From: a virus
Direction: 5' to 3' (one strand)
IMG/VR virus record: IMGVR_UViG_3300010885_035744
Span: 1 to 27,354 of that record
Length of the DNA: 27,354 nt
Within the stretch, counting starts at the first letter, position 1, and every line of letters begins with the position of its first letter. The notes below the pieces were generated by a model that saw nothing but the letters and a program-made list of their open reading frames with translations, was not told the DNA's origin and searched no databases. A program made the position numbers and the translations under genes. Positions 1 through 27,186 of this stretch are shown one piece after another.

Positions 1-25
1 AATACGCACAATCTAAAGGCTTTTC
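1..25 (+). repeat. 25-bp direct repeat, copy 1
   Basis: Positions 1-25 (starting AATACGCACAATCTAAAGGC) recur exactly at 366-390. The left copy is cut by the window edge, so the repeat may be longer. Confidence 0.85.
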
Positions 26-319
26 GATATGAGTAAAGCCATATCGACATGTGACATCTCAATATGACGCAAGCCATATCGACATGCACTGAGACACGCA
101 CCATGAGCGGCGCTGAGAAGAGATGTCGACATACACCATGAGGTACATGCATGCAAGGGGAATCTTTCTCAGCCGCCTGTCACATGTCGATATGACTTGA
201 CACTTGTCTCAAGGTGTGTATGCGGCTCGGCACCGTATGTCGATATGGCTTGACACTTGCTCACGCACCGTGTATGTGGCTCCGCTCGCTCGGTCAGCGC
301 CACAACTCGAGATGTCGAC

Positions 320-337
320 GCAGAAAACCCTTATTTT
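320..337 (+). repeat. 18-bp direct repeat, copy 1
   Basis: GCAGAAAACCCTTATTTT here is repeated exactly at 403-420. In this copy GCAGAAAA (320-327) can also pair with TTTTCTGC (344-351) to form a hairpin. Confidence 0.8.
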
Positions 338-365
338 CATTGGCTTTTCTGCATCACGCATGCAG

Positions 366-390
366 AATACGCACAATCTAAAGGCTTTTC
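366..390 (+). repeat. 25-bp direct repeat, copy 2
   Basis: Exact second copy of positions 1-25, ending in AAGGCTTTTC. It is embedded among short A- and T-rich hairpins. Confidence 0.85.
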
Positions 391-402
391 TGACACCGAC
401 GT

Positions 403-420
403 GCAGAAAACCCTTATTTT
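403..420 (+). repeat. 18-bp direct repeat, copy 2
   Basis: Exact second copy of 320-337. It forms the left part of a terminator-like hairpin. Confidence 0.8.
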
Positions 421-431
421 ATAAGGCTTTT
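408..431 (+). terminator. Probable rho-independent terminator
   Basis: CCTTAT (412-417) and ATAAGG (421-426) form a perfect stem around TTT, extended by flanking A/T pairs and followed by CTTTTT. It would end a transcript entering from the left edge. Confidence 0.5.
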
Positions 432-1456: not shown

Positions 1457-1762
1457 ATGACGAACCGTAGAGATCACTTCGACGCTGGGCACGACCCCGA
1501 GTTTGCAGCGCAGCAGCGCCTACTGCATGAATATAGGGATTGGCACCACCAAAACCTTCCCTATGATGAAAATTCCAGTGACCCTGAAGAGCAGGCAAAA
1601 GCCAAAGCTTATTCAGATACTTTAAGGAACATGTATGAGGGTCTACGGCCTGAACAGATTACTGACAGGCATGTTGCTGAGATGGAACGAGACCCTCAGG
1701 GTACCGGACCCCATAAAGCTGCTATGGGTAACGCTGAAGCCGAGTACAGAGAATATATGTGA
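1457..1762 (+). CDS. Hypothetical protein with MTNRRDHFDAGH N-terminus
   Basis: 101 residues, function not recognised. An in-frame ATG at 1436 exists, but 1457 lies 6 nt after TACAAT and begins MTNRRDHFDAGH, identical for twelve residues to the protein at 1820. The remainder is hydrophilic and probably helical, rich in Glu, Gln, Arg and His, with no Cys and no membrane segment. The two genes agree at nucleotide level through the first 12 codons apart from third-position changes, and then diverge. This suggests a conserved terminal signature on different bodies rather than a recent whole-gene duplication. Confidence 0.7.
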   Translation: MTNRRDHFDAGHDPEFAAQQRLLHEYRDWHHQNLPYDENSSDPEEQAKAKAYSDTLRNMYEGLRPEQITDRHVAEMERDPQGTGPHKAAMGNAEAEYREYM

Positions 1763-2386: not shown

Positions 2387-2599
2387 ATGAAAGACGATAA
2401 CTCTCCTGAAGCGAGGCAGGCTCGCTCCGATGCTCTAGTAGCTCGAACTCAACGTGCTGCTGCTTTTGCCAAATCAAGTGGGTATTCAGCGAACGCTCAG
2501 GCGGCAAGGGAGAAACGTCGTATCCGACGTAATAATGGTCAGGAACAGTTGTTTTCGACTGATACAGAACTTGATCGCCGCCATCCTGAGGAGTTCTGA
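2387..2599 (+). CDS. Small basic helical protein with QEQLF motif
   Basis: 70 residues, function not recognised. It is Ala/Arg/Lys-rich and probably helical through residue 48 (RQARSDALVARTQRAAAF, REKRRIRRNN). Then GQEQLFSTDTEL places QEQLF at 52-56, a fit to the Q-x-x-L-F pattern of bacterial sliding-clamp-binding peptides. The tail is acidic. It is the first gene of an operon: its stop overlaps the next start by one base (TGATG at 2597-2601), implying translational coupling. The basic helical body could bind nucleic acid, but nothing specific is recognised. Confidence 0.7.
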   Translation: MKDDNSPEARQARSDALVARTQRAAAFAKSSGYSANAQAAREKRRIRRNNGQEQLFSTDTELDRRHPEEF

Positions 2600-3639
2600 T
2601 GGCTGCAATAGATAACATTCAAGAACAACTTTTTGATGATTCCGTAGGAAGACTTACTCCTGAGCAGGAAGCACAATCCCGTAGAGAAATCCTAACCAGT
2701 CATGGAAACAAAAATCCTGCGCTGATTGAACACATTGCACAGGATACGTCAATACCCACGAGTGACCTTCATACTCTTCATAATAAGTCTATTAATATTA
2801 TGACAGATAGTGATATGCGCGATTACCCTCAAGCATCAGGGTTTTCGGAGGCACCGATCATTGATGATGGGACTCCGGCCTCCATTGGTATACATCCCTT
2901 AATGGCAACAGGTCATTTATCAAAATACGGTCCTAGAACGGTAGCGCATGAAATAGGGCACGCTATGCATTCGGGAAGACTTCCGACCTCTAGAGTAGAG
3001 AATATTCCGACAGGAATACTACGGAACCTAAAATATCCTGCATCAGAAGGTTCAGCAGAGGGGTACAGTGCACGGTACACAGCCCCTGATGCTCCCCATA
3101 GCAGTATGTACACTCCTGAATTCTTTTCTCAGTCTATGAACACCCGGTGGCAGACTCCACACGGACCTGAATTGTTCTCACGAGCACATAGTTGGACACA
3201 AAGCACAGGTCAGGGCCTTGATATATCCGATTTCAGGAGAATTAAAGATATTTCTCATGTACTTGCTTCTGATTACGATAAGGATTCTTACGGTGACGAA
3301 GTTTCCACTCGTAATGATGTAGGCAACACTCCAATCGATGTAGGTCATCGAATGGCAATAAATGAGATCGACCGCCGTGATCCTTCTGTAAAAACTCCTA
3401 AATTTGAAGATGAACGTCGTAAACGAGATATGGTTATCAATGGGCAATACGTTCAAGGATCTTTGATGCCAGATCTTGTTCCTGAGACTAATCAGTATGG
3501 CGATACCCCTGTTGATCCTTCCGAACTAGCTCCCTCTAGCTGGGGAAAGCATATGCAATTCAAGAAAAAACAGTCAGAAGATAGGTTTCAAAGATGGGCA
3601 ACTGAGCAACGACGCCCGAGATCTGGAAAACAAGACTGA
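2599..3639 (+). CDS. Zincin-like metallopeptidase-fold protein (HEIGH)
   Basis: 346 residues. VAHEIGHAMHSG has the HExxH zinc motif at 117-121, and EGSAEGYSARY (Glu150/Glu154) downstream is a plausible third-ligand segment, as in gluzincin-like folds. The same arrangement, HE(I/Y)GH then EGxA(D/E), occurs in the proteins at 4639 and 5957. The N-terminus MAAIDNIQEQLF combines the MAAxDN signature with QEQLF (8-12). There is no signal peptide, so this is not an obvious secreted protease and may be cytoplasmic or virion-borne. The charged C-terminal third (250-346) is Arg/Lys/Asp-rich. The target protein is unknown. Starts and stops overlap on both sides (TGATG). Confidence 0.65.
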   Translation: MAAIDNIQEQLFDDSVGRLTPEQEAQSRREILTSHGNKNPALIEHIAQDTSIPTSDLHTLHNKSINIMTDSDMRDYPQASGFSEAPIIDDGTPASIGIHPLMATGHLSKYGPRTVAHEIGHAMHSGRLPTSRVENIPTGILRNLKYPASEGSAEGYSARYTAPDAPHSSMYTPEFFSQSMNTRWQTPHGPELFSRAHSWTQSTGQGLDISDFRRIKDISHVLASDYDKDSYGDEVSTRNDVGNTPIDVGHRMAINEIDRRDPSVKTPKFEDERRKRDMVINGQYVQGSLMPDLVPETNQYGDTPVDPSELAPSSWGKHMQFKKKQSEDRFQRWATEQRRPRSGKQD

Positions 3640-3980
3640 TGGCAGCAGCAGACAATATTCGAAACGATCAATTTCGTATGGAGTACTTAACACGGGATAC
3701 GGGTGGATCTAAGCCCCGACACGTTGTAAAGGCTTTTTTAGGAGATGGAGATACACCCTTAGGAAGTATGGGTTGGACGTCTGATGGTATTACAAGTATC
3801 GACGTATATGACCCTAACAACACTAGGAAGGGTATTGCGACGGCTATGTGGGAACATGGTCATCGTTTAGCGGAAGAAAACGCACGGATACCTAAGCCCA
3901 AACATAGTAGTGATCGCACGAGGGAAGGCGATGCATGGGCAAGGGCTGTAGGTGGACGGTTGCCTCGTCGCAAGCAGTAA
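3639..3980 (+). CDS. GNAT-family N-acetyltransferase
   Basis: 113 residues, a minimal GNAT core. ITSIDVYDPNNTRKGIATAM has the acetyl-CoA-binding signature: a strand, then R-K-G-I-A at 63-67 leading into a helix. The C-terminal PKHSSDRTREGDAWARAVGG resembles the HSxxRTxxGxAWA tail common in actinophage GNAT proteins. The acceptor substrate is unknown. The N-terminus MAAADNIRNDQF carries the MAAxDN signature. The start overlaps the stop of the zincin gene (TGATG at 3637-3641), so the two are made together. This is the last gene of the 2387-3980 operon. Confidence 0.72.
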   Translation: MAAADNIRNDQFRMEYLTRDTGGSKPRHVVKAFLGDGDTPLGSMGWTSDGITSIDVYDPNNTRKGIATAMWEHGHRLAEENARIPKPKHSSDRTREGDAWARAVGGRLPRRKQ

Positions 3981-4030
3981 GGGCGGCGTAGGGAGGGAGC
4001 GTTTAGCCCCTTGCCCTCTCAGTTACAAAG

Positions 4031-4050
4031 ATCCTCTTATAGGATATACT
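4031..4050 (+). promoter_or_regulatory. Promoter of 4058 with small dyad touching the -10
   Basis: ATCCT (4031-4035) and AGGAT (4041-4045) are inverted arms directly upstream of and touching the -10 box TATACT (4045-4050). The box ends 7 nt before ATG 4058. Confidence 0.5.
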
Positions 4051-4057
4051 AGTAGGC

Positions 4058-4345
4058 ATGGGTATCTTTCATAAGCTTAAGCACTCCGGTGATCACGGTC
4101 AGATAGCGAACACTAGGGGTGACACATCCTCGTTGCTTCCTCGGGGTGTTGCGGGACCTATGCTTCCTCGTCAGGCCGGTTATGCTGACGCTAAGGCCGG
4201 TAAACCCTTGTATGAGGGAGATCCTCGCTCAGGTGCAGGTAACTGGGACAATCCCTCAGAGAGTTACTTCATGGGTCATATGGATTACGCCTATGAGAAT
4301 GCCGACAAACTCTATCCTTCTCTATTCTCTGGGTCAACAGAATAG
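4058..4345 (+). CDS. Hypothetical protein, GYADAKAG-containing
   Basis: 95 residues. It contains QAGYADAKAGKP (about 40-51) and later FMGHMDYAYENADKLY. A GY.DA..G.P...-spaced-Y..GY..A pattern is seen in small phage and bacterial proteins of unknown function. The N-terminal 35 residues are Gly/Pro/Arg-rich and probably disordered. It is a single-gene unit with its own leaderless promoter and a terminator downstream. No enzymatic motif is visible. Confidence 0.65.
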   Translation: MGIFHKLKHSGDHGQIANTRGDTSSLLPRGVAGPMLPRQAGYADAKAGKPLYEGDPRSGAGNWDNPSESYFMGHMDYAYENADKLYPSLFSGSTE

Positions 4346-4386
4346 AATACTGATATGTGAGAATCACACAGTCTAATTACACACTG

Positions 4387-4408
4387 CCGGTCCTACGGGG
4401 CCGGTTTT
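4387..4408 (+). terminator. Rho-independent terminator with UACG tetraloop
   Basis: CCGGTCC (4387-4393) pairs with GGGCCGG (4398-4404, one G-U pair) around a C(UACG)G tetraloop, the extra-stable UNCG type, and is followed by TTTT. It ends the 4058 transcript. Confidence 0.75.
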
Positions 4409-4480
4409 GTGCTATAAAACGCATAATAAAGTGTATGAGGACCTATTCACCAATTTTTTTCGGAATCTATTGTGGTGTGT

Positions 4481-4486
4481 CATAAT
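4481..4486 (+). promoter_or_regulatory. -10 box of leaderless gene at 4493
   Basis: CATAAT ends 6 nt before ATG 4493, within the sequence GTGTGTCATAATTGATCT. Almost the same box (GTGTGGCATAATTGAAGA) precedes the gene at 1003. Confidence 0.6.
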
Positions 4487-4492
4487 TGATCT

Positions 4493-4639
4493 ATGCCGTA
4501 TGACATTAAGCCTAAGGGTACACAGTTCCAGCTTGTCCTAGAGCGCACCGGCAAGGTGCTGGGGACGCACGCTACCAAGGCCGAGGCGCAAGCTCAAATC
4601 GGGGCAATAGAAGCCTCCAAAGCACGACGGGGTAAATAA
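4493..4639 (+). CDS. Small conserved phage protein, 48 aa
   Basis: A short gene, 48 residues: MPYDIKPKGTQFQLVLERTG, then KVLGTHATKAEAQAQIGAIE and ASKARRGK. A two- to three-strand sheet followed by an alpha helix with the pattern G-x-H-x-T-K-A-E-A-x-A-Q-I-x-A is frequent in tiny proteins of actinophages and cyanophages, often near head genes. Its role is unknown. The stop overlaps the next start by one base (TAATG), so it leads the operon 4493-8635. The start is fixed by the -10 box 6 nt upstream. Confidence 0.75.
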   Translation: MPYDIKPKGTQFQLVLERTGKVLGTHATKAEAQAQIGAIEASKARRGK

Positions 4640-5955
4640 TGACACTAGGCAAGCAATTCGAAAACACTTATTGGCATGACGACGACGGGCGTACGAATTT
4701 CTCTTTAGTAAATAAAGAATCAAAAGAAGGCAAACCTATAAATTCTTCCATGACCGGCACCCTTGATAGGAAATTCGGCGGTGACGAAGGAAAATATTTA
4801 AGTGCTCTTGCCGAAATGGGAAGAATAGAGAGTACACCCCTTCAAGGAATGCTGTTCAGTCCTTATACCGGTACTGGGTTGAAAGGCGATCCCACAGTAG
4901 ATCCTGATGAACGCCAGAAGCGCATCCGCCAAGCCTTAGGACAGCAACTTACTGACAAGGATGAGGCTGACGACCTCGTTTCTGGCACACGACATGAAAG
5001 GTCTAAAGAAGCTTGGGCAGATAATGCTAGCTATGCCGCTGAAATCGACGGACTTGACCCTGATGTTGCTGCAAACAAGTCAAGAGAAAGACATGATAGG
5101 TCGGGACGACAGTTTGTAGACTGGATGGACAACAGCGACCTTCCAATGAATGAGCTTAGAAAATTAGCCGACGAAGATTTTCTGGCTGTCGCTTACCCTG
5201 AAGAAGCACATCGGGGAGGTTATTACAATCAGAGTGGAAAACTTATAGTTGTAGCTGGTAATAGTACTCCCGAACTTCGGGCAGAAGGAAAACATTTTCC
5301 AAATAGTAGAGCCAGTACCCTCATGCATGAGTATGGGCACGCCGCAGATTTTGAAATTCATCGTGGAAGAGACCCGTTAGCACAACAAATTGATAGAAAA
5401 GGTGTAACAGCAGATCCTGTTCAAGAAGGAATAGCTGACGGGTATGCCGATAAACATCAGAGGCATGCGGGTGCTTTAGAGTCAGTAAGACGAGATCAAC
5501 ATGAAGCTGATAATGCTCATCAAACAGGATATGGGATAAGTCATTGGTCCGACGGTCCTTCTGTAAGATCCGCTTTATATGCCGCCTCTCGCTTTATCAC
5601 AGCCCGAAGAGGTAATAGTTCTTCTATTCCTTTTAAATCTGCTGATGTTGTTGCTCCCCCTGACCCTTCAATAGGTTCACATCCAGCTAATGTTCAATGG
5701 GCCAATGAACGTGCTGTGCACGATCATCAACTAGCTAACATTTGGGAGCACAATCCTGATATCCATGACTCTATGGAACGTGCCGGAATGGGCGACATTG
5801 CTAGATACGTTCATGCCAAGCACTTTGATCCTCAAGCAAGCCGCCGTGAAGCCTTCTGGAGTCACAGGGAACCTGATAGTGAAGTTCCTGTCGAAGACCG
5901 TGAAACTCCTCCTCCCGCTAAATACGACGAACCTCTACCTTTAGAAGGAATATAA
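4639..5955 (+). CDS. Zincin-like metallopeptidase-fold protein (HEYGH), paralogue A
   Basis: 438 residues. LMHEYGHAADFE gives HExxH at 230-234, and DPVQEGIADGYAD (Glu263) supplies the likely third zinc ligand. The N-terminus MTLGKQFENTYWHDDDG and an internal QGMLFSPYTGTG (QGMLF 69-73) are shared with the next protein, together with EGxAD and a downstream RxALYAA(S/T)R segment. The C-terminus PLPLEGI resembles the neighbour's FDLEGI. The region 120-200 has no counterpart in the neighbour, so the pair are diverged tandem paralogues. No signal peptide is seen. A cytoplasmic or virion-packaged protease is likely, with an unknown target. An inactive zincin-fold scaffold is the alternative. Confidence 0.68.
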   Translation: MTLGKQFENTYWHDDDGRTNFSLVNKESKEGKPINSSMTGTLDRKFGGDEGKYLSALAEMGRIESTPLQGMLFSPYTGTGLKGDPTVDPDERQKRIRQALGQQLTDKDEADDLVSGTRHERSKEAWADNASYAAEIDGLDPDVAANKSRERHDRSGRQFVDWMDNSDLPMNELRKLADEDFLAVAYPEEAHRGGYYNQSGKLIVVAGNSTPELRAEGKHFPNSRASTLMHEYGHAADFEIHRGRDPLAQQIDRKGVTADPVQEGIADGYADKHQRHAGALESVRRDQHEADNAHQTGYGISHWSDGPSVRSALYAASRFITARRGNSSSIPFKSADVVAPPDPSIGSHPANVQWANERAVHDHQLANIWEHNPDIHDSMERAGMGDIARYVHAKHFDPQASRREAFWSHREPDSEVPVEDRETPPPAKYDEPLPLEGI

Positions 5956-5956
5956 A

Positions 5957-7171
5957 ATGCCGTTAGGTAAGCAGTTCCGAAACACCTATTGGGAAGACGA
6001 AAACGGCAATACGAGGTATGCCCTTGATAAGGGAGGAGATCGTCCCGAATATACCTCTTCCTCTGCCGAAGTTGAAAAGCCCACGCAAGGCATGCTTTTT
6101 GACCCCTACACCGGTACGGGGTACAAGGAAGACCCTTCCGTGCATCCTATCCAGCGACAGGCCATAGCATCTAACGCTCTTGGTTGGCCTGAAGATGATC
6201 GCCTCAGTCAGTCTTTGGCCGATTCTGGTATTCCAATACAAACAATGCGTAAGATAAACACTAGCGCCAAAGTAAGCCCAATTCCTAGTATGTATGGCAA
6301 CGCTGCTCAATATAGCCCTGATGATAATGAGCTACTTTTAGATAGCAATCAAGCTATGTCCTCTCCAGACACAATAGGGGCGGCTCTTACCCATGAAATA
6401 GGCCATCATCTAGATCGTAGTGTTCATAAGACTACTGAAGGACGTCTAAGGTTCTTAGACCCTGTCTACACTGACATGTGGGACGATCCTGACACCCCTT
6501 CTAAGCTTCCCGAAGGCCCCACTCCTGACTGGGATTCGGAATATACAGGAGGCGCCGATCCTGTTGAGGAAGGAAAAGCTGACGCCTTTATGGACAGGTC
6601 TCATACATTCTCTGATGTGTATGAGCACAAGATGCCTGAGGTGGTAGCTAGAAACATGTCTGAGCCTTTCTCAGATAGAGGGTATGGGGTTAATGCCCGT
6701 AGTTGGAAACGGAAAAAAAACCACGATCATACTGACACCAATAGAGCGCTTTATGCTGCAACAAGGATTCTTGCCAGTAAAGGTGACTCTGCTGGCTCAG
6801 ATCTTCCCAATAGATCAGAAGTACTTAACGACACTTATGGAAGTAGATACTCAACACTGACTGATATGCCTGAACCATATGATTTTCCTCATGGTTTTGA
6901 TGATTCCGGTTATAAAAAAGCCACTGAAGAAGCACTCCAAGGCGCACAACATACCAATAATAAGACTTTGTTGGGTCACTACGTTTCTAGAAACCCCGGC
7001 CTTATTACTAGTTTGCATGGTATAAATCCTCTTCTTGGAGACGCCGCTAGAGAGGCTCACGCCCACTACAAGAGTATCGAACCCGCTGATGGTACATATC
7101 TTAAGCGCCAGCGAGAAGAAGCCAAGGCGGCTCGTGGAGAGCAATTGAGATTTGATCTAGAGGGTATTTGA
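5957..7171 (+). CDS. Zincin-like metallopeptidase-fold protein (HEIGH), paralogue B
   Basis: 404 residues. LTHEIGHHLDRS gives HExxH at 146-150, followed by DPVEEGKADAFMD (Glu205). It is paralogous to the preceding protein along its length: MPLGKQFRNTYWEDENG, QGMLFDPYTGTG (QGMLF 44-48), zincin core, RALYAATRI, and a helical C-terminus. It ends GEQLRFDLEGI, so it has a second Q-L-x-F motif at 396-399. The start is 1 nt after the previous stop, with a weak AGAAGGA ribosome site inside the upstream gene. Motif conservation suggests zinc binding is kept; activity is inferred, not shown. Confidence 0.68.
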   Translation: MPLGKQFRNTYWEDENGNTRYALDKGGDRPEYTSSSAEVEKPTQGMLFDPYTGTGYKEDPSVHPIQRQAIASNALGWPEDDRLSQSLADSGIPIQTMRKINTSAKVSPIPSMYGNAAQYSPDDNELLLDSNQAMSSPDTIGAALTHEIGHHLDRSVHKTTEGRLRFLDPVYTDMWDDPDTPSKLPEGPTPDWDSEYTGGADPVEEGKADAFMDRSHTFSDVYEHKMPEVVARNMSEPFSDRGYGVNARSWKRKKNHDHTDTNRALYAATRILASKGDSAGSDLPNRSEVLNDTYGSRYSTLTDMPEPYDFPHGFDDSGYKKATEEALQGAQHTNNKTLLGHYVSRNPGLITSLHGINPLLGDAAREAHAHYKSIEPADGTYLKRQREEAKAARGEQLRFDLEGI

Positions 7172-7172
7172 T

Positions 7173-7871
7173 ATGGACCCTGAGAAACTCAGCAAATATC
7201 AATTTAGCGCTGGGACTAAATTTCACGATGCTAAAAACCGTGATGCCGGTAAAACCGTAGTAACTGCCCATCGACAAGGTGATGACCCCTCTACTACTCC
7301 ACCAGTAGCAGCCTTATACATAGGTCATGGGGGGATTAGCCAAGCTTCTTCTCAATTAGAAATAAATAACCCAGATAGTTCTTGGGAGCATGGCGTAAAT
7401 GAAGATGAACACGGTCAGAGGTTTTGGACCGGAGGATCTTTTGACAAGCCTTGGGCCAGTGACATTGACTCTATGTCATGGTTAGGAACTACTGATCGCA
7501 ATCCTCATCTTCTTAGAGGACTTTTAGCCACTGCGGGCGTTGAGCACGCCAGAACTAGAGGACCCGGAAGGCTGCACGCTGACTTAAGTATGACAGAAGA
7601 TAGTGCTAGAATTGCACGTCGTCTATCTAAATCATTAGGATTAAAGCCACATCCTTCAAATCCTGAAATGAAATCTAATAATGAAGACTGGAAAGAAGAT
7701 ATCCACCTTAATGAACTAACTAATCATGGTATTTATACTGGTTCCGCTGATGTTCTCCAGCCGGTATCTTCTGATGAGGTAGCTGTTAACGTGGGTACCG
7801 TCTTCGGTAAAAGAACTCGTAAGAAAAAGCCTACGGGTCCTCAACCTGAGCAATTGAGATTTGATATCTGA
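7173..7871 (+). CDS. GNAT-like protein with C-terminal QLRF motif
   Basis: 232 residues. The middle (about 95-165) reads as a GNAT-like core: TTDRNPHLLRGLLATAGVEH resembles the acetyl-CoA loop and following helix, then DSARIARRLSKSLGL resembles the C-terminal helix and strand. The R-x-x-G-x-A loop is weaker than in the gene at 3639, so the family call is tentative. The N-terminus MDPEKLSKYQF has a leucine four residues before Q-F, as in other proteins here. The C-terminus PEQLRFDI (QLRF 227-230) nearly repeats the end of the preceding zincin. The start lies 1 nt after the zincin stop. The acceptor is unknown. Confidence 0.5.
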   Translation: MDPEKLSKYQFSAGTKFHDAKNRDAGKTVVTAHRQGDDPSTTPPVAALYIGHGGISQASSQLEINNPDSSWEHGVNEDEHGQRFWTGGSFDKPWASDIDSMSWLGTTDRNPHLLRGLLATAGVEHARTRGPGRLHADLSMTEDSARIARRLSKSLGLKPHPSNPEMKSNNEDWKEDIHLNELTNHGIYTGSADVLQPVSSDEVAVNVGTVFGKRTRKKKPTGPQPEQLRFDI

Positions 7872-8635
7872 TGGCCGCTATTAATAATCTGCGATTAGAG
7901 CAATTCATGCGTCACTATCCCGACATGATGCGTGAAAGCTTAGCCTTTGGTAAAAGGGCGGCTTTAGAGGAGCACGGGCAGCGTACCGCTCCTTATGGGG
8001 GCAACATAGGACCCACCATAAATGCAGATAACTACATTAATCCGGGTGACGCCGTAGGAGAGCGTGTTATCGCTCATATCCACTCACCCGCCTCTCAGGC
8101 TTCTTTTGCCCTACATAACCCTGATAATCCTAATCGACTTACTCGTAGCCCATTTAGGCGTGCTCCTCATATTTATACGATAAGTCGTCTCAGCCCCAGT
8201 GGATCTTCTATCGATGAGCACCTCGGGTGGACTACAGGACTTTCTTTGTCTAATGCAGGACTTTGGGTCGACAAAGACGAATTGAAAACACATCTAATAG
8301 ATAAAAACGTAGGAACTAAGAAAGTAAACAAAACTACGGGAGAAGTACAGCAGCGGGAACCAAGAGGAGCGGACGCTGCAAAGACTAGGAATACCGCTAT
8401 CAGTGGCATTATTTCTTCTACTCCCCGTTCTACCAAGGATTACCATAGTCTGATAGTAAAACCGGGTTATGTAGCCGATGCTGATACTGGGGAAGACATC
8501 TATGAGCATCCTCTTCATAGCGATATAGAGTCGAAAGCACCCGGAGGGTTAGTAGTACCTTCTTTGGGAAGACGCTTAGTATTAGGTAACAGTGGTAACT
8601 TGTTTAGACCAAGCGCTTTATATCTTCCACATTAA
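7871..8635 (+). CDS. Hypothetical protein with MAAxNN N-terminal signature
   Basis: 254 residues, function not recognised. MAAINNLRLEQFMRHY matches the MAAxDN signature family and has a leucine at position 7 and Q-F at 11-12. The body includes a Pro/Arg/Ser-rich middle (LTRSPFRRAPHIYTISRLSP). A Lys-rich segment (about 140-170) may be a linker, and the tail has many hydrophobic beta-like stretches (GGLVVPSLGRRLVLGNSG). There is no Cys, no HExxH and no membrane helix. It is the last gene of the 4493-8635 operon, overlapping the GNAT-like stop (TGATG). Operon position suggests the same class of role as its neighbours. Confidence 0.62.
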   Translation: MAAINNLRLEQFMRHYPDMMRESLAFGKRAALEEHGQRTAPYGGNIGPTINADNYINPGDAVGERVIAHIHSPASQASFALHNPDNPNRLTRSPFRRAPHIYTISRLSPSGSSIDEHLGWTTGLSLSNAGLWVDKDELKTHLIDKNVGTKKVNKTTGEVQQREPRGADAAKTRNTAISGIISSTPRSTKDYHSLIVKPGYVADADTGEDIYEHPLHSDIESKAPGGLVVPSLGRRLVLGNSGNLFRPSALYLPH

Positions 8636-12375: not shown

Positions 12376-12707
12376 TGGCGACTTCGTTACCTCTCGTTAT
12401 ACGCATAGGTGACGATAAGACACTGGACTTCACGTTTCGTTTGAAGTCTGGTGCTTATCTTGACATTTCCGGCAGGACTTACACCGCCCAGATTCGTCGT
12501 ACCTATTCAGACCCCAACGTCCTTGCTGCGTTTACTTGCAACGTGGTGAACGGACCCAATGGGCATCTGGTTTGCACTCTTCCAAATGCCGTCACCAGCG
12601 CCCTCAGAGTGGGCAGTGCAAAATGGGATTTGCAAGAAGAGTATGGGAACGTAAGCAACACCATATTTAGTGGAACGGTTTCAATACAACAGGAAGTATC
12701 TCAATGA
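12375..12707 (+). CDS. Tail-fibre adaptor-like protein (BppU N-terminal-type)
   Basis: 110 residues, all-beta. LVIRIGDDKTLDFTFRLKSG, then LDISGRTYTAQIRRTYSD, a mid segment ending LVCTLPNAVTSALRVGSAKWD, and final SGTVSIQQEVS follow the layout of small baseplate/fibre N-terminal domains: a leading strand, D-I-S-G-x-T-x-x-A-Q-I-R, a T-x-x-L-x-x-G-x-x-x-W-D segment, then a last strand. This family usually precedes fibre genes and acts as an attachment or adaptor domain. The stop overlaps the next start (ATGA), fitting co-assembly with the collagen-like fibre. Confidence 0.6.
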   Translation: MATSLPLVIRIGDDKTLDFTFRLKSGAYLDISGRTYTAQIRRTYSDPNVLAAFTCNVVNGPNGHLVCTLPNAVTSALRVGSAKWDLQEEYGNVSNTIFSGTVSIQQEVSQ

Positions 12708-14290
12708 ACGTCAGCGATAATTCTCTTAGAGTAGATGTTCTTGTTGATGGTGACTCTTACACTCTTAGTGGAATAACTTCTATCGGCCCACAAGGTCCCC
12801 GAGGATCTCAGGGAGTTCAAGGACCTCAAGGACCTAGTGGGGGCGCACAGGGGCCTCAAGGTTTTCAGGGAAATCAAGGATCTCAAGGATACCAAGGTCC
12901 ACAAGGAACTCAAGGCCCACGAGGATATCAAGGACCTCAGGGATACCAAGGCGGTACGGGTGCTAAGGGAGATAGAGGTTATACGGGGCCTTTAGGTCCC
13001 CAAGGGTACCAAGGCGCTCAAGGAGCAGTTGGTGCTAAAGGGTCCCAAGGTAACCAAGGTTCTACAGGCCCTATCGGTCCCCAAGGTATCCGAGGAGGTC
13101 AGGGATCTCAAGGTCCTATTGGCGACCAAGGGCCTCAAGGGGCTATTGGACTTCAAGGGGTACAAGGTCCTCGTGGGTATCAAGGCCCACAGGGATATCA
13201 GGGCTACCAAGGGCCACAGGGCTACCAAGGTCATCAAGGTTCCCAAGGGGCTAGGGGCTATCAGGGAAGCGTGGGACCTCAAGGTCCTAAGGGGTTTCAA
13301 GGAGATAGTGGCGATATTTACGCTGCCGCTTCTAGTACATCTATTACACTCCCCGCCAGTGGGGTTGTTACCTTAACCATACCTCCGAAGCTTGCCTATA
13401 CTTCTGCTCAAAGCATCATTGTCGCTCATAACTCGTCTAATTACATCAGTGTAACTATCAACTCCTATAGTTCTGTTACTGGTGTTTTGGCTGGGACTGT
13501 TACTGCATCAGTTGGGTCGGGTACTTACACTTATTGGAATGTAAACCTTGCCGGTGCTGTCGGTGTTCAGGGTCCCCGAGGGTTTCAAGGAGATCAGGGT
13601 GATCAGGGTGCCCAAGGTGATCAGGGTGCCCAAGGTGATCAGGGTGCCCAAGGTGCTCAAGGAGATCAAGGAGCTAAGGGTGATCAGGGTGCTAAGGGTG
13701 ATCAAGGCGCCCAAGGAGATCAGGGTGCTAAGGGTGATCAGGGCGCTGTAGGACCTAGAGGATTCCAAGGAAACCAAGGCGCTGTAGGGCCACAGGGTGA
13801 CCAAGGTTCGACAGGTCTAAGAGGGCCTCAAGGGTACCAAGGTGATCAGGGGCCAGTAACTCTGTATGTAAGCGCTACTGCTCCTACTGACCACTCAGTT
13901 CTATGGGCAGACGTTATGGCTACGGGGACCATGGGTATTGTTGGTCCTCAGGGAACCGCAGGCGCTCAGGGAGACTGGTCTTCCGCTGAAGAAATAAAGG
14001 AAATAACCACCACTACCTACAGTGTAGTAGGTAGTGATGTAGGTAAGTTACTTCTATTTTCTAGCGCTGGTTCTGGTGGGACAATAAGCGTTACCCTAAA
14101 CAGCGGCTTAGGAATAGCTGCTGGGAAGCGTATAGATTTAGCGCAGACCGGCACAGGTAAAGTTCTTATATCTGGTACTGCCACTGTTAATGCAAGCCAT
14201 ACCAAGCAGTTAGCTTACAGATATTCAGCGGCAACGATCATTTGTACAGGAATAGACACCTACTTATTAGTTGGAGACATAGCACCATGA
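12704..14290 (+). CDS. Collagen-like tail fibre protein
   Basis: 528 residues. Two collagen-like blocks of Gly-X-Y triplets (28-204 and about 287-384) are dominated by Gln at Y (GPQGYQGPQGYQ). They flank a beta domain (205-283, SSTSITLPASGVVTLTI to GSGTYTYWNV), and a C-terminal beta-rich head follows (about 385-528). Such triplets form trimeric triple helices in phage fibres, with the globular parts giving trimer registration and receptor contact. The start ATG 12704 has AGGAAG 7 nt upstream. One triplet break occurs near residue 46 (PSGGAQG). The stop overlaps the tailspike start (ATGA). The long ORFs on the other strand and frames here are by-products of the repetitive codons. Confidence 0.9.
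   Translation: MNVSDNSLRVDVLVDGDSYTLSGITSIGPQGPRGSQGVQGPQGPSGGAQGPQGFQGNQGSQGYQGPQGTQGPRGYQGPQGYQGGTGAKGDRGYTGPLGPQGYQGAQGAVGAKGSQGNQGSTGPIGPQGIRGGQGSQGPIGDQGPQGAIGLQGVQGPRGYQGPQGYQGYQGPQGYQGHQGSQGARGYQGSVGPQGPKGFQGDSGDIYAAASSTSITLPASGVVTLTIPPKLAYTSAQSIIVAHNSSNYISVTINSYSSVTGVLAGTVTASVGSGTYTYWNVNLAGAVGVQGPRGFQGDQGDQGAQGDQGAQGDQGAQGAQGDQGAKGDQGAKGDQGAQGDQGAKGDQGAVGPRGFQGNQGAVGPQGDQGSTGLRGPQGYQGDQGPVTLYVSATAPTDHSVLWADVMATGTMGIVGPQGTAGAQGDWSSAEEIKEITTTTYSVVGSDVGKLLLFSSAGSGGTISVTLNSGLGIAAGKRIDLAQTGTGKVLISGTATVNASHTKQLAYRYSAATIICTGIDTYLLVGDIAP
13598..13651 (+). repeat. 18-bp perfect tandem repeat, three copies
   Basis: GGTGATCAGGGTGCCCAA is repeated three times (13598-13615, 13616-13633, 13634-13651). 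Diverged copies continue to about 13750. It encodes GDQGAQ and is a slippage-prone segment that can change fibre length in six-residue steps. Confidence 0.9.
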
Positions 14291-17200: not shown

Positions 17201-17322
17201 TCAATACTTTAACAGGCCCTCCTACTTTCAACTTAAAGTTTGCACAGAACGCAACAGCAGTAACCGGTACGGTAGCAGCACTAAGGGAAGGTTCTAACAT
17301 TACGTTCACTCAGATCGGTTGA
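14287..17322 (+). CDS. Tailspike/tail fibre with short collagen segment and beta-helix-like body
   Basis: 1011 residues. ATG 14287 is chosen because it overlaps the fibre stop (ATGA); the open frame from 14242 merely runs inside the previous gene. The N-terminus MTVIKQFNNSTGQWEEVLFG leads into a short collagen stretch (GPQGPKGDTGNTGPQGP). NAVDIREFQDN then introduces a Pectate_lyase_3-like segment (DTLVLPKGFYKC, MHLTGSGMTLTRL, HRYLLRNVRIAHFARTALTI) typical of right-handed beta-helix tailspikes. Two copies of a GSGTY...W beta module follow (about 15980-16190 and 16290-16530). The C-terminal part (from about 16860) is beta-rich. It is likely a receptor-binding or depolymerase trimer on the tail; no catalytic residues can be assigned by eye. 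Confidence 0.82.
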   Translation: MTVIKQFNNSTGQWEEVLFGAIGPQGPKGDTGNTGPQGPLVPGGLKGQVLSKASNTNYDYSWADRQYKNAVDIREFQDNIAVGVFDPTYRDVTDITPAIIRAFGVLSNDGYSYISGQTPELTRGDTLVLPKGFYKCQPFSYHFPMHLTGSGMTLTRLAPVNNVHVNGSTAEQFITLKKGPNNTPYLSENHIPGSLIENLFIDGRGRTIDIGGLEYQFQHRYLLRNVRIAHFARTALTINQSPRESVIDYVYLIGSGDGSSYPQFDLSENTTSDDTNNMHFKNFFSIFPFGDSMWLRPDPTTGSRFARNVYFSQSMIHGVTGGIRQSMMFQDGYGYIGTPVTRGSTALTIAGNGSAFLNGARFVNSSYGKPSIRECDYPIDSGYSKQTGPIVSYSQNINFEIGTNLTLFTMPYGTNFTTGTRVKFPIDSDILPSAFSHSKYYFVILVDSNHIKLATTYKNAINSVAIPYTSASNLNATITSYVNTGASNYLHYAQGNVGQSQYLTGSVTTSSGSPTFTVVPESVNSPVDADESRLFQDSEHNLTTGALIRFSNSQTTSQSTLVVGEGPRSFTVANPSLIYPGQTLTLTTNADYSTSIMSVVVDTCNRDTGVVTGTSIFHYGSGTYSAWNVYVTEIPTGINTEVDYYAVVPTTRSFQTYPTPLNPASGYATTSSSSLTIVSSGDITLTIVPIGTFGPDQMVSVVYDVDNWMMIRVNSYNSATGQVVGSVFASKGSGTYGPGIGTWDINRTTANTGQWGEMAVSPTTFKIAGSFLDAEYSAKNPSDTSRLISVGSNGSCAFTTQRYFVSLEKGSMHLQDVDFDGTTDNSLIRAASDVKLDIGKGMDFAQNKVLPPDFNTVMNQLPVYLSSAIFSNDNTTNVTGIRAIYPQLLKNAQYTFEGTLYVTSDPAEDIKLSVGYNNLYDLKWYASGLASDGTTFITSDGIVGEGTGTTASVAMGTKSATVPNVITVKGTFNTLTGPPTFNLKFAQNATAVTGTVAALREGSNITFTQIG

Positions 17323-21702: not shown

Positions 21703-21720
21703 AATATGGAATAAATGCTT

Positions 21721-21726
21721 TATAGT
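21721..21726 (+). promoter_or_regulatory. -10 box of leaderless terminase gene
   Basis: TATAGT ends 6 nt before GTG 21733. The upstream in-frame ATG 21715 would place the -10 box inside the coding region. Confidence 0.6.
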
Positions 21727-21732
21727 GGCATC

Positions 21733-23319
21733 GTGGCTACTTACGAAGATTTAGGCAATCCAGACGACATCGAAGAAGGAAATTACATTGAGGACGAGGA
21801 CCAAGAGGTAGTAGAAGAAGAAGAAGATTATGGACTTGATGCTGAGTCTCAAGCCTTTGTTGATGAGTTGATCAAGAGAATTATCATATTCTGTGAGGAA
21901 TTCGCCGGTTTAGAGCTTCGTCCTTATCAACGTAGTCTTGCGTACAGGATCGTGGAATCACTGGTCATGGTGGACGGCGAGGAAGTTACGGCTCTGTGGT
22001 CACGTCAAAGCGGTAAAAGCGAAACCCTGTCGGTGATTGTGGCTGGTTGTATGGTTATCCTTCCCAAGCTTGCTATGTCTTATGAAATGCTGGAGCGCTT
22101 CAAGCGAGGACTTTGGGTAGGGGTGTTTGCCCCTGTCGATAGCCAGTCAGACTTCCTTCATGGCCGAATTGTGGATAAGTTGACTTCTGAGCACGCTCAG
22201 GATTTCCTTAATGATCCCGAGCTTGATGAGCGGGTTGATGGTAAGTCCAAAGTGATCCGGCTTCGATCAGGTTCTCTCTGTCGCCGTTCGACTGCTAACC
22301 CCCGAGCCAAGATCGAAGGCGCTTCCTACCATCTTGTAGTTATTGATGAGGCCCAAGAGGCCGATGACACGATGGTTAGGAAATCGATCCACCCCATGCT
22401 TGCAGCCTATGCAGGAACCATGGTCAAGATCGGTACCCCCTCGTTCCATAAGGGTGATTTCTACAAAGCCATCCAGTTGAACAAGCGTCGTGGTACGCAG
22501 CGTCGTAGTCGTATGAATCACTTTGAATACGATTATCGGACTGTGAGTAAATACAATCCTTATTACGCCAAGTTCATTACTCAGGAGAAAATGCGGCTTG
22601 GAGAGGATTCCGATGAGTTCCAGATGTCCTACAACCTCAAGTGGATGCTTGACCGAGGAATGCTCGTGGCTGAGGACGATCTGGACTTCTTGTCCGATCC
22701 ATCTATGCCACTGGTGAAGTCATGGCACCGGACCCCCTGCGTAGTGGGAATCGATCCCGCCCGTGTGAAGGACTCCACCGTGGTGACCGTGTGCTGGGTG
22801 GATTGGGACTTCCCTGATCCTGCGGGTTTCCGAGAGCACCGAATTCTGAATTGGCTGGAGATCCAGAACACTGAGTGGGAAGAACAGTACTTCCAGATTC
22901 TGGACTTCCTTGATAACTACAACATCGCCTATGTAGGCGTGGACGCTCAAGGTATGGGGTCTGCTGTGGCAGAGCGCCTCAAGCGGCTTTTAGAGCATAA
23001 GTGCGAGGTCATACCAGTATCATCCGATATCAAGACTCAGAGTGAGCGTTGGAAGCATCTGATCTCTCTTCTCCAGCGCCGCATGATCGTGTACCCCGGT
23101 CACTCCAAGGCCAAGCGCACACGAGTGTGGCGTCGATTCCGGCAGCAGATGGAGGACGCCGAGAAGGTCATCAAGGGCAACTACATGATGATTCAGGCCC
23201 CACCGGATGAGCGTGACTCCCATGACGACTATGTGGACTCGCTCGCCATTGCCTGCGCTATGAGCATAAACGATACTACTCCATATGTGGAAACCTTCGA
23301 GGCTCCTTGGTTCAGGTAA
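21733..23319 (+). CDS. terL: Terminase large subunit
   Basis: 528 residues from GTG 21733 (534 from ATG 21715); GTG is preferred because it lies 6 nt after TATAGT. The ATPase has Walker A SRQSGKS (90-96), Walker B LVVIDEA (201-207) and then a coupling segment VKIGTPS. The nuclease has acidic residues in VVGIDPARVKDST (Asp341), YVGVDAQGMG (Asp404) and HDDYVDSLAIACA (Asp498-502). It cuts and pumps DNA into proheads through the portal. A highly acidic Glu/Asp-rich N-terminal extension (about residues 10-35) precedes the motor. No small terminase subunit is recognised upstream. The codons are G/C-rich, unlike the accessory cassette. Confidence 0.95.
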   Translation: MATYEDLGNPDDIEEGNYIEDEDQEVVEEEEDYGLDAESQAFVDELIKRIIIFCEEFAGLELRPYQRSLAYRIVESLVMVDGEEVTALWSRQSGKSETLSVIVAGCMVILPKLAMSYEMLERFKRGLWVGVFAPVDSQSDFLHGRIVDKLTSEHAQDFLNDPELDERVDGKSKVIRLRSGSLCRRSTANPRAKIEGASYHLVVIDEAQEADDTMVRKSIHPMLAAYAGTMVKIGTPSFHKGDFYKAIQLNKRRGTQRRSRMNHFEYDYRTVSKYNPYYAKFITQEKMRLGEDSDEFQMSYNLKWMLDRGMLVAEDDLDFLSDPSMPLVKSWHRTPCVVGIDPARVKDSTVVTVCWVDWDFPDPAGFREHRILNWLEIQNTEWEEQYFQILDFLDNYNIAYVGVDAQGMGSAVAERLKRLLEHKCEVIPVSSDIKTQSERWKHLISLLQRRMIVYPGHSKAKRTRVWRRFRQQMEDAEKVIKGNYMMIQAPPDERDSHDDYVDSLAIACAMSINDTTPYVETFEAPWFR

Positions 23320-23334: not shown

Positions 23335-24216
23335 ATGGCTGCGAAAGATAATCTTAGCGAACAACTTCATCTCTTCACGCCGCCTGATCCTGAACCCGCT
23401 GTGGATGTGTCGGATTGGGCTAGACAGCAGCAGTGGCATGCTTCCAAGCAAGGTATATTTCCTAAAACGGATAGAGATGTGTCGTCACCAAAAAGGGATG
23501 ACAGTGCGGAGTGGAGATCTGCCGCAGGACATCCTTTAGGATTCCATATGGGTACCCCTTGGGCGGCTACAGATAGAGATGTATTTGCCCACAAGGTCTA
23601 CCATCCTCTGAATCTTCAGGGAGAAGACTACGCTCCAACTGATGAGTTGGATATGGCGGTTAACGAAGATTACGGGTTTGATATACCTCATCTATGGTCT
23701 GATGATTCTGCAAATGGAGCAAATGCTGAGTCAACCAGAGCCGTTCGACAAGGTAAAAACATCCCTTACCTCAATGAGGGTGAGGACGTTGGTTCGGTGT
23801 CGTACAGAGCGCCAAGAAAAAACATACGGACTTGGAGCCAGAGTGTAATCCATAATCCAGATTCCACTTTTGCCGAACGAGCGGCTGTTCGTAAGGGTGC
23901 GGAACTTGCCTATGTGCGACTTCCTAACAATATAAGAGGTCCTGTAAATACTATAAAAGATTCTCAAGGGGAATCCATGGAAGTTCCTACCCCAAGAGGA
24001 CTTAAGGCTTCTCCTATTGATTTCAGTCCTGAGGGTCTTTCTTCTCAGGCCCAACATGAGTTCTATGATGAAGAAACCGGTGAAATGATTCTTCCTGAAC
24101 GTAGGCTTCTGGGCAGATTTACCTATCCTGAAAAAACGGCCCGTGAAGAAAGAATACGGCAAAGCAAACTAGGAACCAACCGTATAGGACAGCTACCCCT
24201 AGAACTAGAACTATAA
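23335..24216 (+). CDS. Possible ADP-ribosyltransferase-like-fold protein with clamp-type motifs at both ends
   Basis: 293 residues. The N-terminus MAAKDNLSEQLHLFTPPDP joins the MAAxDN signature to QLHLF (10-14), the closest match here to the consensus clamp-binding pentapeptide. The C-terminus GQLPLELEL (QLPLEL 286-291) fits the hexapeptide form. Between them, GFHMGTPWAATDR and IPYLNEGEDVGSVSYRAPRK recall an actinophage pattern (H-x-G-T... then Y-x-N-x-x-E-D-x-G-S-x-S-Y) that suggests an ADP-ribosyltransferase-like fold. I am not sure of that; catalytic residues cannot be confirmed by eye. It sits alone between the terminase and virion-like genes. Confidence 0.45.
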   Translation: MAAKDNLSEQLHLFTPPDPEPAVDVSDWARQQQWHASKQGIFPKTDRDVSSPKRDDSAEWRSAAGHPLGFHMGTPWAATDRDVFAHKVYHPLNLQGEDYAPTDELDMAVNEDYGFDIPHLWSDDSANGANAESTRAVRQGKNIPYLNEGEDVGSVSYRAPRKNIRTWSQSVIHNPDSTFAERAAVRKGAELAYVRLPNNIRGPVNTIKDSQGESMEVPTPRGLKASPIDFSPEGLSSQAQHEFYDEETGEMILPERRLLGRFTYPEKTAREERIRQSKLGTNRIGQLPLELEL

Positions 24217-25254: not shown

Positions 25255-27186
25255 ATGGCTAAGAAACGTAAAAAAATAGTAGATCCTAGTGAGAACCTCG
25301 CTAACTTTTCTACTACAAAACCCGGAGATGTAGTTGGTGGCGGTGATCCAGTCGTTTCTCAAACCGGAGAAACTCGCCAGACCGCTCCTGCTGCTGTTTC
25401 TATAGGTCGTCTTACCAACAACGAAATAAATACCGATGATATAGATAGCTCTGGTATGTCTTTAGGTGCTCGTATGGCACAACGCGGTCAGGTATATTTT
25501 CCCGGCGCTGGTCGCGGTACCGGTCGTATTAGTCCTCGAATCCCTCATAGATTATCTATACGAGATCAAATTCTTGAGTCCAACCCTGAAACCGCTATCG
25601 GTATTGATATAAACCAAGGAATGCTATTTCATCCTGATTATATTGATGAGTTAGAGACTAAAGCTGCTGGAGCACCTCCCCTTCGTGAATCATCTAAGGG
25701 AGGTATAGTTCCCACTGTTGGTTCTGTGTCTTTAGCCCATCAAGAATTAGATGAAGCTGCTGGGCGTATTGCCGAGGATCAGGGTGCTCGTGTTGCAAAA
25801 GCTGAGAAAACAAGAGCTTCTCACGAAAAAAAACCAACTGCTACTAGTGAAGCTAAGATGCTGGAGGCCGCTGAGAAAGCTGAGGCTCCTTCACAAGAGG
25901 AATTAAATTTAAGAGGAATGGGAGGGGCTATTAGAGATGCAAAAATTAAGTCCCTTAAGACAGTGCAGGATTTATTCCGCGCTGGCCCAGCGTATGTAGA
26001 GCCTAAACAAAGTAAACCTACTGAAAAAAACCCTAATCCTCGTCCAGTATCTCAAAAAAAAATAGATGCTGCTAAAGAATCACATCGACTTCAACAGATT
26101 ACCCATGAACAAAAACTTAGAGAACTTGTAGGCCCTGAAGTAGGTCCCGTAAATAGGAACGATATCTTTCTACACGCCCATGGACGTCAACTTTTAGCTA
26201 GTGCTTTCGACCCAGATATTGACCCGACATTTTATCCCGGCTCATCACAGGAACAAATGCGTGACGTTGCTTCTGAAGAAGCCGTCCATCCTATGTCGGT
26301 TCGAAGCGTTGTGGGAACCACATCTGCTCAGCGGTCTTGGAGAAAGACGATAGGAGCAGGAACAGAAGACGAGCGCACTAACTATCCAAATTTAGATGCA
26401 TCTGAAGCCTCCATTAATAAAGTACAGGACGTTGCTAGAGATTATCCTGATCGATCTGATCCAGCTTTCATAGAGTCAGCAGGTAACGCTACTAGAGGTA
26501 CTAAAGGTGTATCAGGAGGACTTACCGCCCTTCATGGAAGAAACACTGCCAAAATTCTTCGAGGAGAACTTCCTTCAGGGGAGTTTGACCCTTCAGCTAT
26601 TGTAGATTTTTGGAATGAGTCAGATAGTGACAAACAGCCTACATTCACATTAGGTTTGGCAGCTAATGCAGCGGGAGATGTCGACCTACAAGGAAGAGTT
26701 TCTAAGCCCAATAAAGGATTAGCACGTTCTTCTGCTCAGGCTATGACTGTCGACACACACCAAGTTCGACCTATGGGAATAACATACGATAGCGTTTTAG
26801 GTACAGGACCGGGCATGCATACCCGTGCATTTCAAATGCCCGGCAATCAACCGGGGAAATCAACCCAACCACATTATGGAACTATAGCTAACATTGGTAC
26901 TGCCGCCACCCATTTAATTGCTCAACGCATGATTAATAGCGATGGTTCGTGGATGCGAAAGTCCTCCCCAGATGCAGAACCTACTGCTAACCCTCTACCT
27001 ACCCCTCGTGATGTTCAAGAAAACTTGTGGGGAAGTTATGCCGCCGATGTTGCAGGAGATATTGCTGCTGCTAAAGCAGCGGGTACCAAAGAGCGTCAAA
27101 GTAGTAGAGAATACTACAGGCGTTTAAATGACACTAGTAAACGAATTAATACTGTACGTTCTCGCAAAGAAGAGTTTGGACAATAA
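25255..27186 (+). CDS. Large hypothetical protein with QGMLF motif and possible DUF7178-like C-terminal domain
   Basis: 643 residues. A basic N-terminus (MAKKRKKIVD) precedes a disordered stretch. RISPRIPHRLSIRDQILE then leads to INQGMLFHPDYIDEL, with QGMLF at 121-125 as in the zincin paralogues. A Lys/Ala/Glu-rich linker spans about 170-285. The C-terminal half runs through VRSVVGTTSAQRSWRKTI, TKGVSGGLTALHGRNTAKIL and MTVDTHQVRPMG. That order recalls actinophage proteins often called DUF7178 or glycosylase-like (S-x-x-x-x-W... N...KA..IL.G... VTVD.H..R). I hold this loosely. There is no signal peptide. A DNA-associated or virion role is possible. Confidence 0.6.
   Translation: MAKKRKKIVDPSENLANFSTTKPGDVVGGGDPVVSQTGETRQTAPAAVSIGRLTNNEINTDDIDSSGMSLGARMAQRGQVYFPGAGRGTGRISPRIPHRLSIRDQILESNPETAIGIDINQGMLFHPDYIDELETKAAGAPPLRESSKGGIVPTVGSVSLAHQELDEAAGRIAEDQGARVAKAEKTRASHEKKPTATSEAKMLEAAEKAEAPSQEELNLRGMGGAIRDAKIKSLKTVQDLFRAGPAYVEPKQSKPTEKNPNPRPVSQKKIDAAKESHRLQQITHEQKLRELVGPEVGPVNRNDIFLHAHGRQLLASAFDPDIDPTFYPGSSQEQMRDVASEEAVHPMSVRSVVGTTSAQRSWRKTIGAGTEDERTNYPNLDASEASINKVQDVARDYPDRSDPAFIESAGNATRGTKGVSGGLTALHGRNTAKILRGELPSGEFDPSAIVDFWNESDSDKQPTFTLGLAANAAGDVDLQGRVSKPNKGLARSSAQAMTVDTHQVRPMGITYDSVLGTGPGMHTRAFQMPGNQPGKSTQPHYGTIANIGTAATHLIAQRMINSDGSWMRKSSPDAEPTANPLPTPRDVQENLWGSYAADVAGDIAAAKAAGTKERQSSREYYRRLNDTSKRINTVRSRKEEFGQ

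What the first reader, a model, noticed from the sequence alone, without database searches (positions are those of the whole stretch)
2599..7171. Three zincin-like proteins with HE(I/Y)GH and EGxA(D/E) in one cassette
Seen: HEIGH at 2599 (117-121), HEYGH at 4639 (230-234) and HEIGH at 5957 (146-150), each followed by an EGxA[DE] segment suited to a third zinc ligand. 4639 and 5957 are clear paralogues; 2599 is more distant. None has a signal peptide. Several divergent intracellular or virion-borne zincins in one phage is unusual and fits an arms-race effector family, perhaps targeting host defence or regulatory proteins.
Basis: partly seen in the sequence, partly recalled or inferred. Interest (0 to 1): 0.6.

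Follow-up and report, generated by a model that had tools for sequence, protein, structure and literature searches.

The report
Phage zincin family with address tags
Three genes in an uncultured virus of bacteria encode related zinc-dependent protein-cutting enzymes of an undescribed family, and they carry short end-labels like those on many unrelated enzymes of the same and related viruses, which suggests a shared delivery label for proteins that the virus injects into its host.

Summary
The window encodes three HExxH proteins, each with a downstream E-G-x-A-[D/E] segment (0.01 expected by shuffling). All three belong to one family with no Pfam, PHROG, PADLOC or PDB match. It has about 24 distinct members in uncultured tailed phages; every complete member keeps HExxH and nearly all keep [DE]PxxEGxA. 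A predicted structure of 5957 puts both motifs on helices, and the best PDB neighbours, though weak, are gluzincins. 2599 joins by sequence only.

The zincins share a disordered N-terminal leader (LGxQFxNTYW), a QGxLFxP motif and a C-terminal QLxLPGxE or FDLEG motif; the first two are about as conserved as the active site. A variant of the leader (NLSxxQF) begins proteins of roughly 30 unrelated families in the same and related phages, including an Arr ADP-ribosyltransferase and GNATs, sometimes five genes in a row. In some relatives the zincin lies between terminase and portal.

Most likely these are late-made effectors, packaged through a shared tag as with T4 internal proteins, then injected to cleave host proteins. 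The zincin assignment is strong; packaging and host targets are inferred. Rivals are phage-protein processing and clamp binding.

The parts
2599..3639 (+). divergent zincin, 346 aa; tag DNIQEQLF at 2611-2634, HEIGH at 2947-2961, EGSAE at 3046-3060
   Evidence: predicted structure inconclusive
4639..5955 (+). zincin, 438 aa; leader LGKQFENTYW 4645-4674, QGMLF 4843-4857, HEYGH 5326-5340, DPVQEGIAD (EGIAD 5425-5439), C-terminal PLPLEGI 5932-5952
5957..7171 (+). zincin, 404 aa; leader LGKQFRNTYW 5963-5992, QGMLF 6086-6100, HEIGH 6392-6406, DPVEEGKAD (EGKAD 6569-6583), C-terminal EQLRFDLEGI 7139-7168
4493..4639 (+). 48-aa ORF that opens the gene run 4493-8635, with a CATAAT box a few nt upstream of its ATG
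3639..3980 (+). tagged protein (MAAADNIRNDQF), GNAT-like; homologue L101:12059-12388 hits acetyltransferase models weakly
7173..7871 (+). cassette protein of unknown fold with C-terminal tag PEQLRFDI (QLRFDI 7851-7868)
7871..8635 (+). tagged protein (MAAINNLRLEQF), fold unknown
2387..2599 (+). small cassette protein containing QEQLF near its C-terminus; overlaps the start of 2599
23335..24216 (+). tagged protein directly downstream of terminase (MAAKDNLSEQLHLF ... GQLPLELEL); related to ART-like L024:1693-2727
   Evidence: no Pfam hit
25255..27186 (+). 643-aa non-zincin protein near the terminase that also carries QGMLFHP (25615-25635)
21715..23319 (+). terminase large subunit, lineage marker

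Best explanation
The three genes encode members of a new family of phage gluzincin-type metallopeptidases. SHOWN: they share a catalytic signature, HExxH plus a Glu in [DE]PxxEGxA[DE], that is conserved across about 24 divergent phage proteins, together with conserved short motifs in predicted disordered ends. Variants of the N-terminal motif begin proteins with many unrelated bodies in the same and related phages, and in several relatives the gene sits inside the head module. INFERRED: the terminal motifs are address labels that bring these proteins into the assembling head or virion. The proteins are made late, packaged with the DNA and injected, and the zincins then cleave host proteins (defence or regulatory) at the very start of the next infection. 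Multiple divergent copies reflect different or evolving targets. Working estimates: zincin fold and zinc site 0.9; active peptidase 0.8; host-directed 0.6; delivered in the virion through the tag 0.5.
For: HExxH is present in every complete member of the family and the third-ligand motif in nearly all, at 25-35% identity. AlphaFold places HEIGH on helix 137-152 and EGKAD on helix 202-215 after strands. The top PDB neighbours are selecase and abylysin minigluzincins, then lethal factor, deuterolysin, collagenase H, IrrE and ArdC (best E 0.3, probability 0.97). The leader (mean conservation 0.64) and QGxLFxPxTGTG (0.68) are as conserved as the HExxH helix (0.59) and the EGxAD helix (0.70); neighbouring stretches are at 0.19-0.40. 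Residues 1-52 of the model are below pLDDT 50. The N-terminal tag search found 106 distinct ORFs with 38 unrelated bodies by BLAST, about 30 of them credible, including Arr ADP-ribosyltransferase (Pfam E 1e-12, matching from residue 12, right after the tag), GNAT (7e-5), and weak PARP and ParB_N. Arrays of up to five tagged genes occur (L112). An ATG-anchored tag pattern hit 39 viral stretches, 19 of them at ORF starts, but only 16 in 257 Gb of cellular genomes, close to my rough chance estimate, 3 of them start-like. Context: terminase, zincin, portal on one strand in L203; zincin, portal, scaffold, capsid in L201, L202 and L204; terminase, tagged ART-like, zincin in L024. Precedents: T4 internal proteins share only an N-terminal capsid-targeting leader (PMC3012670, PMC12373910); phage ARTs next to terminase or portal genes are probably packaged (PMC9503650).
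Against: No virion proteomics was found for these uncultured phages, so packaging is not shown. The zincins' own leader (LGxQF) differs from the commonest tag (NLSxxQF); calling them one class is a judgement. 2599 has a further variant (DNIQEQLF). The cultured relatives (Streptomyces phages BRock, GiJojo, LuckySocke) have neither tag nor zincin in the regions examined. In the window itself the zincins lie about 15 kb from terminase, near tail-fibre, lysis and glycosyltransferase genes. The model has mean pLDDT 62 and no PDB match below E 0.001; the 2599 model has no zincin neighbour. No substrate is known.
Confidence: 0.5

Rival explanations
1. The zincins are maturation or processing peptidases that act on the phage's own proteins (head, tail or the tagged cargo); the shared short motifs are substrate or docking sites for them rather than packaging labels.
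For: The gene lies in the head module in L203, L201, L202, L204 and L024. Iyer et al. propose that MPTases process multidomain phage polypeptides (PMC5512222). QGxLFxP also occurs in non-zincin phage proteins (25255 family, L024:1693-2727).
Against: Two or three divergent copies per phage and rapid divergence are unlike a single essential maturation protease. Many phages with the same terminase lineage have no detectable copy, though their records are fragments. Tagged arrays occur on loci with no detected zincin, such as L112 and L130, though these are fragments.
Confidence: 0.17
2. The terminal motifs are beta sliding-clamp-binding motifs, so the enzymes are recruited to the host clamp or phage replication fork after infection.
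For: The canonical motif Q-phi-x-[LM]-[FL] or its hexamer form (PMC11139829) occurs 34 times within 25 residues of termini against 13.3 expected from internal density (P 1.5e-6); the reversed motif gives 6 against 9.5. Examples are EQLNLFD, QLSLDL, QLHLF and QLRMF.
Against: The commonest N-terminal form, NLSxxQF, and the zincin motifs LGxQF and QGxLF do not meet the consensus. About ten of the hits come from one related ParB-like family (QLxMFMPA). No clamp is annotated in the GiJojo regions examined.
Confidence: 0.13
3. The enzymes are toxins aimed at eukaryotic grazers that eat infected bacteria, as suggested for ADP-ribosyltransferases of freshwater phages.
For: Kavagutti et al. 2019 (PMC6802176) make this proposal for freshwater phage ARTs; some Foldseek neighbours are secreted or toxin zincins.
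Against: No signal peptide, binding or translocation domain is seen. The accompanying GNAT and ParB-like proteins are typical of phage-bacterium conflict (PMC5512222).
Confidence: 0.05

Closest known systems
Zincin-like metallopeptidase (MPTase) domains of polyvalent phage/plasmid proteins (Iyer et al. 2017, PMC5512222)
   Same: HExxH helix plus a second helix with a Glu ligand; found with ART, GNAT and ParB-like domains; phage conflict setting next to virion genes
   Different: Here each enzyme is a separate polypeptide with short terminal tags, not fused into one large protein; no Pfam PolyVal peptidase match
Phage T4 internal proteins and Alt with the capsid-targeting sequence
   Same: Several proteins with unrelated bodies share only a short N-terminal leader; repertoire includes an ADP-ribosyltransferase; diversified, multi-copy
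   Different: Leader sequence is different; packaging and cleavage not shown; includes a zincin family and C-terminal tags
Minigluzincins (selecase, abylysin) and lethal-factor-like peptidases
   Same: Best fold neighbours of the 5957 model; HExxH with Glu as third ligand
   Different: No sequence match to any PDB chain; fold scores weak
ArdC / ImmA-IrrE
   Same: Zincin domain in conflict proteins
   Different: No Pfam match, no ArdC N-terminal domain, only marginal fold matches (E 6.4-7.6)

Membership tests
Zincin / gluzincin metallopeptidase | HExxH conserved among homologues | tested here: met
   present in all complete members of about 24
Zincin / gluzincin metallopeptidase | third ligand Glu on a following helix | tested here: met
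   [DE]PxxEGxA[DE] in nearly all members; helix 202-215 in the 5957 model
Zincin / gluzincin metallopeptidase | zincin fold by structure comparison | tested here: inconclusive
   5957: top hits are gluzincins but E is at least 0.3; 2599: no zincin hit
Zincin / gluzincin metallopeptidase | zinc binding and proteolysis | not testable with these tools
   needs protein biochemistry
Polyvalent protein MPTase | domain fused in a large multidomain polypeptide | tested here: not met
   window proteins are 346-438 aa with one recognised motif pair and no other Pfam domain
Polyvalent protein MPTase | match to known PolyVal peptidase models | tested here: not met
   no Pfam or PHROG match above cut-off
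T4-type internal protein with capsid-targeting leader | shared N-terminal leader on unrelated bodies | tested here: met
   106 tagged ORFs, 38 unrelated bodies; positional controls
T4-type internal protein with capsid-targeting leader | present in virions and injected | not testable with these tools
   no isolate
T4-type internal protein with capsid-targeting leader | leader removed by prohead protease | not testable with these tools
   no prohead protease is annotated in the related head module
beta-clamp binder | canonical Q-phi-x-[LM]-[FL] motif in a disordered end | tested here: inconclusive
   met in many proteins; not met by NLSxxQF, LGxQF or QGxLF
ImmA/IrrE or ArdC | family profile match | tested here: not met
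   no Pfam match for the window proteins or A5 members, no PADLOC match for the window proteins

The most novel reading that the evidence does not exclude
A short transferable address label (NLSxxQF / LGxQF at the N-terminus, QLxLPGxE or QLxF[DE]LEG at the C-terminus) marks dozens of unrelated enzymes in a widespread lineage of uncultured tailed phages for delivery with the genome. The injected arsenal could then be read directly from sequence, and the zincins would be a new family of injected host-directed proteases in it.
Probability: 0.42. Interest if true: 0.78.

Novelty: new variant of a known kind. Interest (0 to 1): 0.6.

Why it matters
Which proteins a phage injects is normally known only for a few model phages such as T4. 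If the shared terminal motif is a packaging label, the injected enzymes of a large group of uncultured phages can be listed from sequence and tested by fusing the label to a reporter. The zincin family, with no match in the family libraries searched, would add a multi-copy class of candidate early host-protein-cutting enzymes.

Tried and rejected
Single-protein searches of viral contigs with 5957 and 2599 found nothing; relatives appeared only through the terminase and then degenerate patterns. The first alignment was too diverse for a scan. Known phages: no full-length relative of 5957 or L057; a 28% hit in Brevibacillus phage Sundance (E 0.09) was rejected as chance. Cellular genomes: no relative. 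PDB sequence searches: none. An early motif count restricted to proteins shared by several records showed only a weak signal, because it removed the variable cassette genes; it was redone on deduplicated sets with positional, reversed-motif and shuffle controls. Matches to MPARDNFDExQF inside a long, unrelated phage protein family were set aside as a different, internal motif. The structure model of 2599 was unusable for fold assignment.

Full report
What was checked. The window is a 27,354-base virus record, probably a fragment of a larger genome, of a tailed phage with a terminase at 21715-23319. Of 37 window proteins three contain HExxH and the same three contain E[GAS]x[AS][DE] 15-80 residues downstream; shuffling gives 0.66 and 0.01.

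The phage. Terminase relatives at 46-100% identity were found in 30 loci. The nearest cultured phages are the Streptomyces phages BRock, GiJojo, LuckySocke, Alone3 and pSt2308, contractile-tailed, 112-116 kb (terminase 48%, and 57% for the capsid protein of a lineage relative). An actinobacterial host is therefore likely, but this is inference.

The zincin family. Single queries found nothing, but the terminase relatives hold homologues, and degenerate patterns and profile searches brought the family to about 24 distinct members. HExxH is present in every complete member and the downstream motif is [DE]PxxEGxA[DE] with few exceptions (one member has EGLAG; a few remote members lack the strict form). 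Further conserved blocks are GYG and ALYxAxR. Larger members carry an insertion of 100-300 residues before the active site. The window's 2599 joins through L069, profile comparison and the HMM built without it. Multi-copy sets recur: three in the window, three in G022, two in G016 and two in G024. No Pfam, PHROG, PADLOC or PDB sequence match was found, no relative in 85,000 cellular genomes at the sensitivity of one scan, and no convincing one in about 50,700 phage records.

Structure. AlphaFold2 on 5957 with 11 sequences gave mean pLDDT 62, with most of the core at 84-93. HEIGH lies in helix 137-152 and EGKAD in helix 202-215, after strands at 103-107, 117-120 and 125-129. Foldseek's best PDB neighbours are minigluzincins, followed by lethal factor, deuterolysin, collagenase H, IrrE and ArdC; none is below E 0.3. 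This supports but does not prove the fold. The model of 2599 is uninformative. Zinc geometry could not be measured because coordinates are not returned.

The tags. Residues 1-52 of the 5957 model are disordered, yet the leader LGxQFxNTYW and QGxLFxPxTGTG are as conserved as the catalytic helices, while the flanking stretches are not. Ten of the 27 invariant columns of alignment A4 fall in this disordered part. QGxLFxP also occurs in two non-zincin families near the terminase, 25255 and L024:1693-2727. A related leader, (D/N)NLSxxQF or its QLx[LM]F form, starts other genes of the window (3639, 7871, 23335) and many genes of related phages. A systematic search found 106 tagged ORFs that fall into 38 groups with unrelated bodies, perhaps 30 of them credible genes. 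Domains immediately after the tag include Arr-type ADP-ribosyltransferase (E 1e-12) and GNAT (E 7e-5, above cut-off), with weak matches to PARP, ART-PolyVal and ParB_N. L112 has five tagged genes in a row and L115, L130 and L200 have four each. Controls: QF within residues 3-26 occurs in 48 of 830 family representatives against 22 and 24 in the next windows. The ATG-anchored pattern hit 39 viral stretches, 19 start-like, against 16 and 3 in 257 billion bases of cellular genomes; by a rough estimate of mine about 15 cellular hits are expected by chance.

Position. In L203 the order is terminase, zincin, an endolysin-like match, portal; in L201, L202 and L204 zincin, endolysin-like match, portal, scaffold, capsid; in L024 terminase, tagged ART-like protein, zincin. 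All are on one strand. In the window 4493-8635 forms a tight run of five genes that overlap or lie 1 nt apart.

Mechanism. The repertoire (zincin, ART, GNAT, ParB-like) is the one Iyer et al. (PMC5512222) found fused in polyvalent proteins that are thought to be injected. Here the parts are separate and share a short label, as the T4 internal proteins do (PMC3012670, PMC12373910). Position in the head module is the criterion by which phage ARTs have been inferred to be packaged (PMC9503650). I therefore favour late synthesis, tag-mediated entry into the head, injection, and cleavage of host proteins. The catalytic signature, tag sharing and gene position are shown; delivery and targets are inferred.

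Rivals. Processing of phage proteins cannot be excluded. Canonical beta-clamp-binding motifs are enriched at protein ends (34 against 13.3; reversed motif 6 against 9.5), so a clamp-docking role is possible for part of the set, but the commonest tag forms do not meet the published consensus (PMC11139829) and about ten of the hits are one ParB-like family. Action on eukaryotic grazers has been proposed for freshwater phage ARTs (PMC6802176) but nothing here supports it.

Novelty. The fold class is known; the family is undescribed in the libraries searched; the shared-label arsenal is a variant of known injected-protein systems. It would become more if the label is shown to direct packaging.

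Noticed in passing
window 1003, 1457, 1820, 2387, 4058, 4493, 8653, 10474, 20786, 23335, 24245: TATAAT-like boxes lie only a few nt upstream of the ATG of most operon-leading genes, cassette and head genes alike: a leaderless promoter design.
   Followed up: partly
window 1457-1762, 1820-2350, 516-956; L057:9578-10105, L059:1146-1592: A second shared leader, (R)(R/T)(D/E)HF(D/N)AGHG, starts proteins whose bodies look different; in the window it is a 36-nt repeat at 92% identity.
   Followed up: partly
window 1-430: The left edge is made of direct and palindromic repeats (CATATCGACATG / CATGTCGATATG, GCAGAAAACCCTTATTTT); the first 25 bases recur further in.
   Followed up: no
window 12704-14290: Collagen-like Gly-x-y repeat protein beside the long tail-fibre-like gene 14287-17322; collagen-like proteins are also annotated in phage BRock.
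   Followed up: no
L206, tagged ORF of 119 aa: Small protein beginning MHNNVPGIEDLRAQF with HEASH, perhaps a minimal relative zincin.
   Followed up: no
L079:7921-8403, L095:14632-15111, L178:10394-10807 and others: A ParB-like family whose N-terminus is xHVNPxQLRMF[MI]PA, very close to a canonical clamp-binding motif.
   Followed up: partly
L110, L111, L116, L120, L129 and others: MPARDNFDExQF is a conserved internal motif of another, unrelated phage protein family.
   Followed up: no
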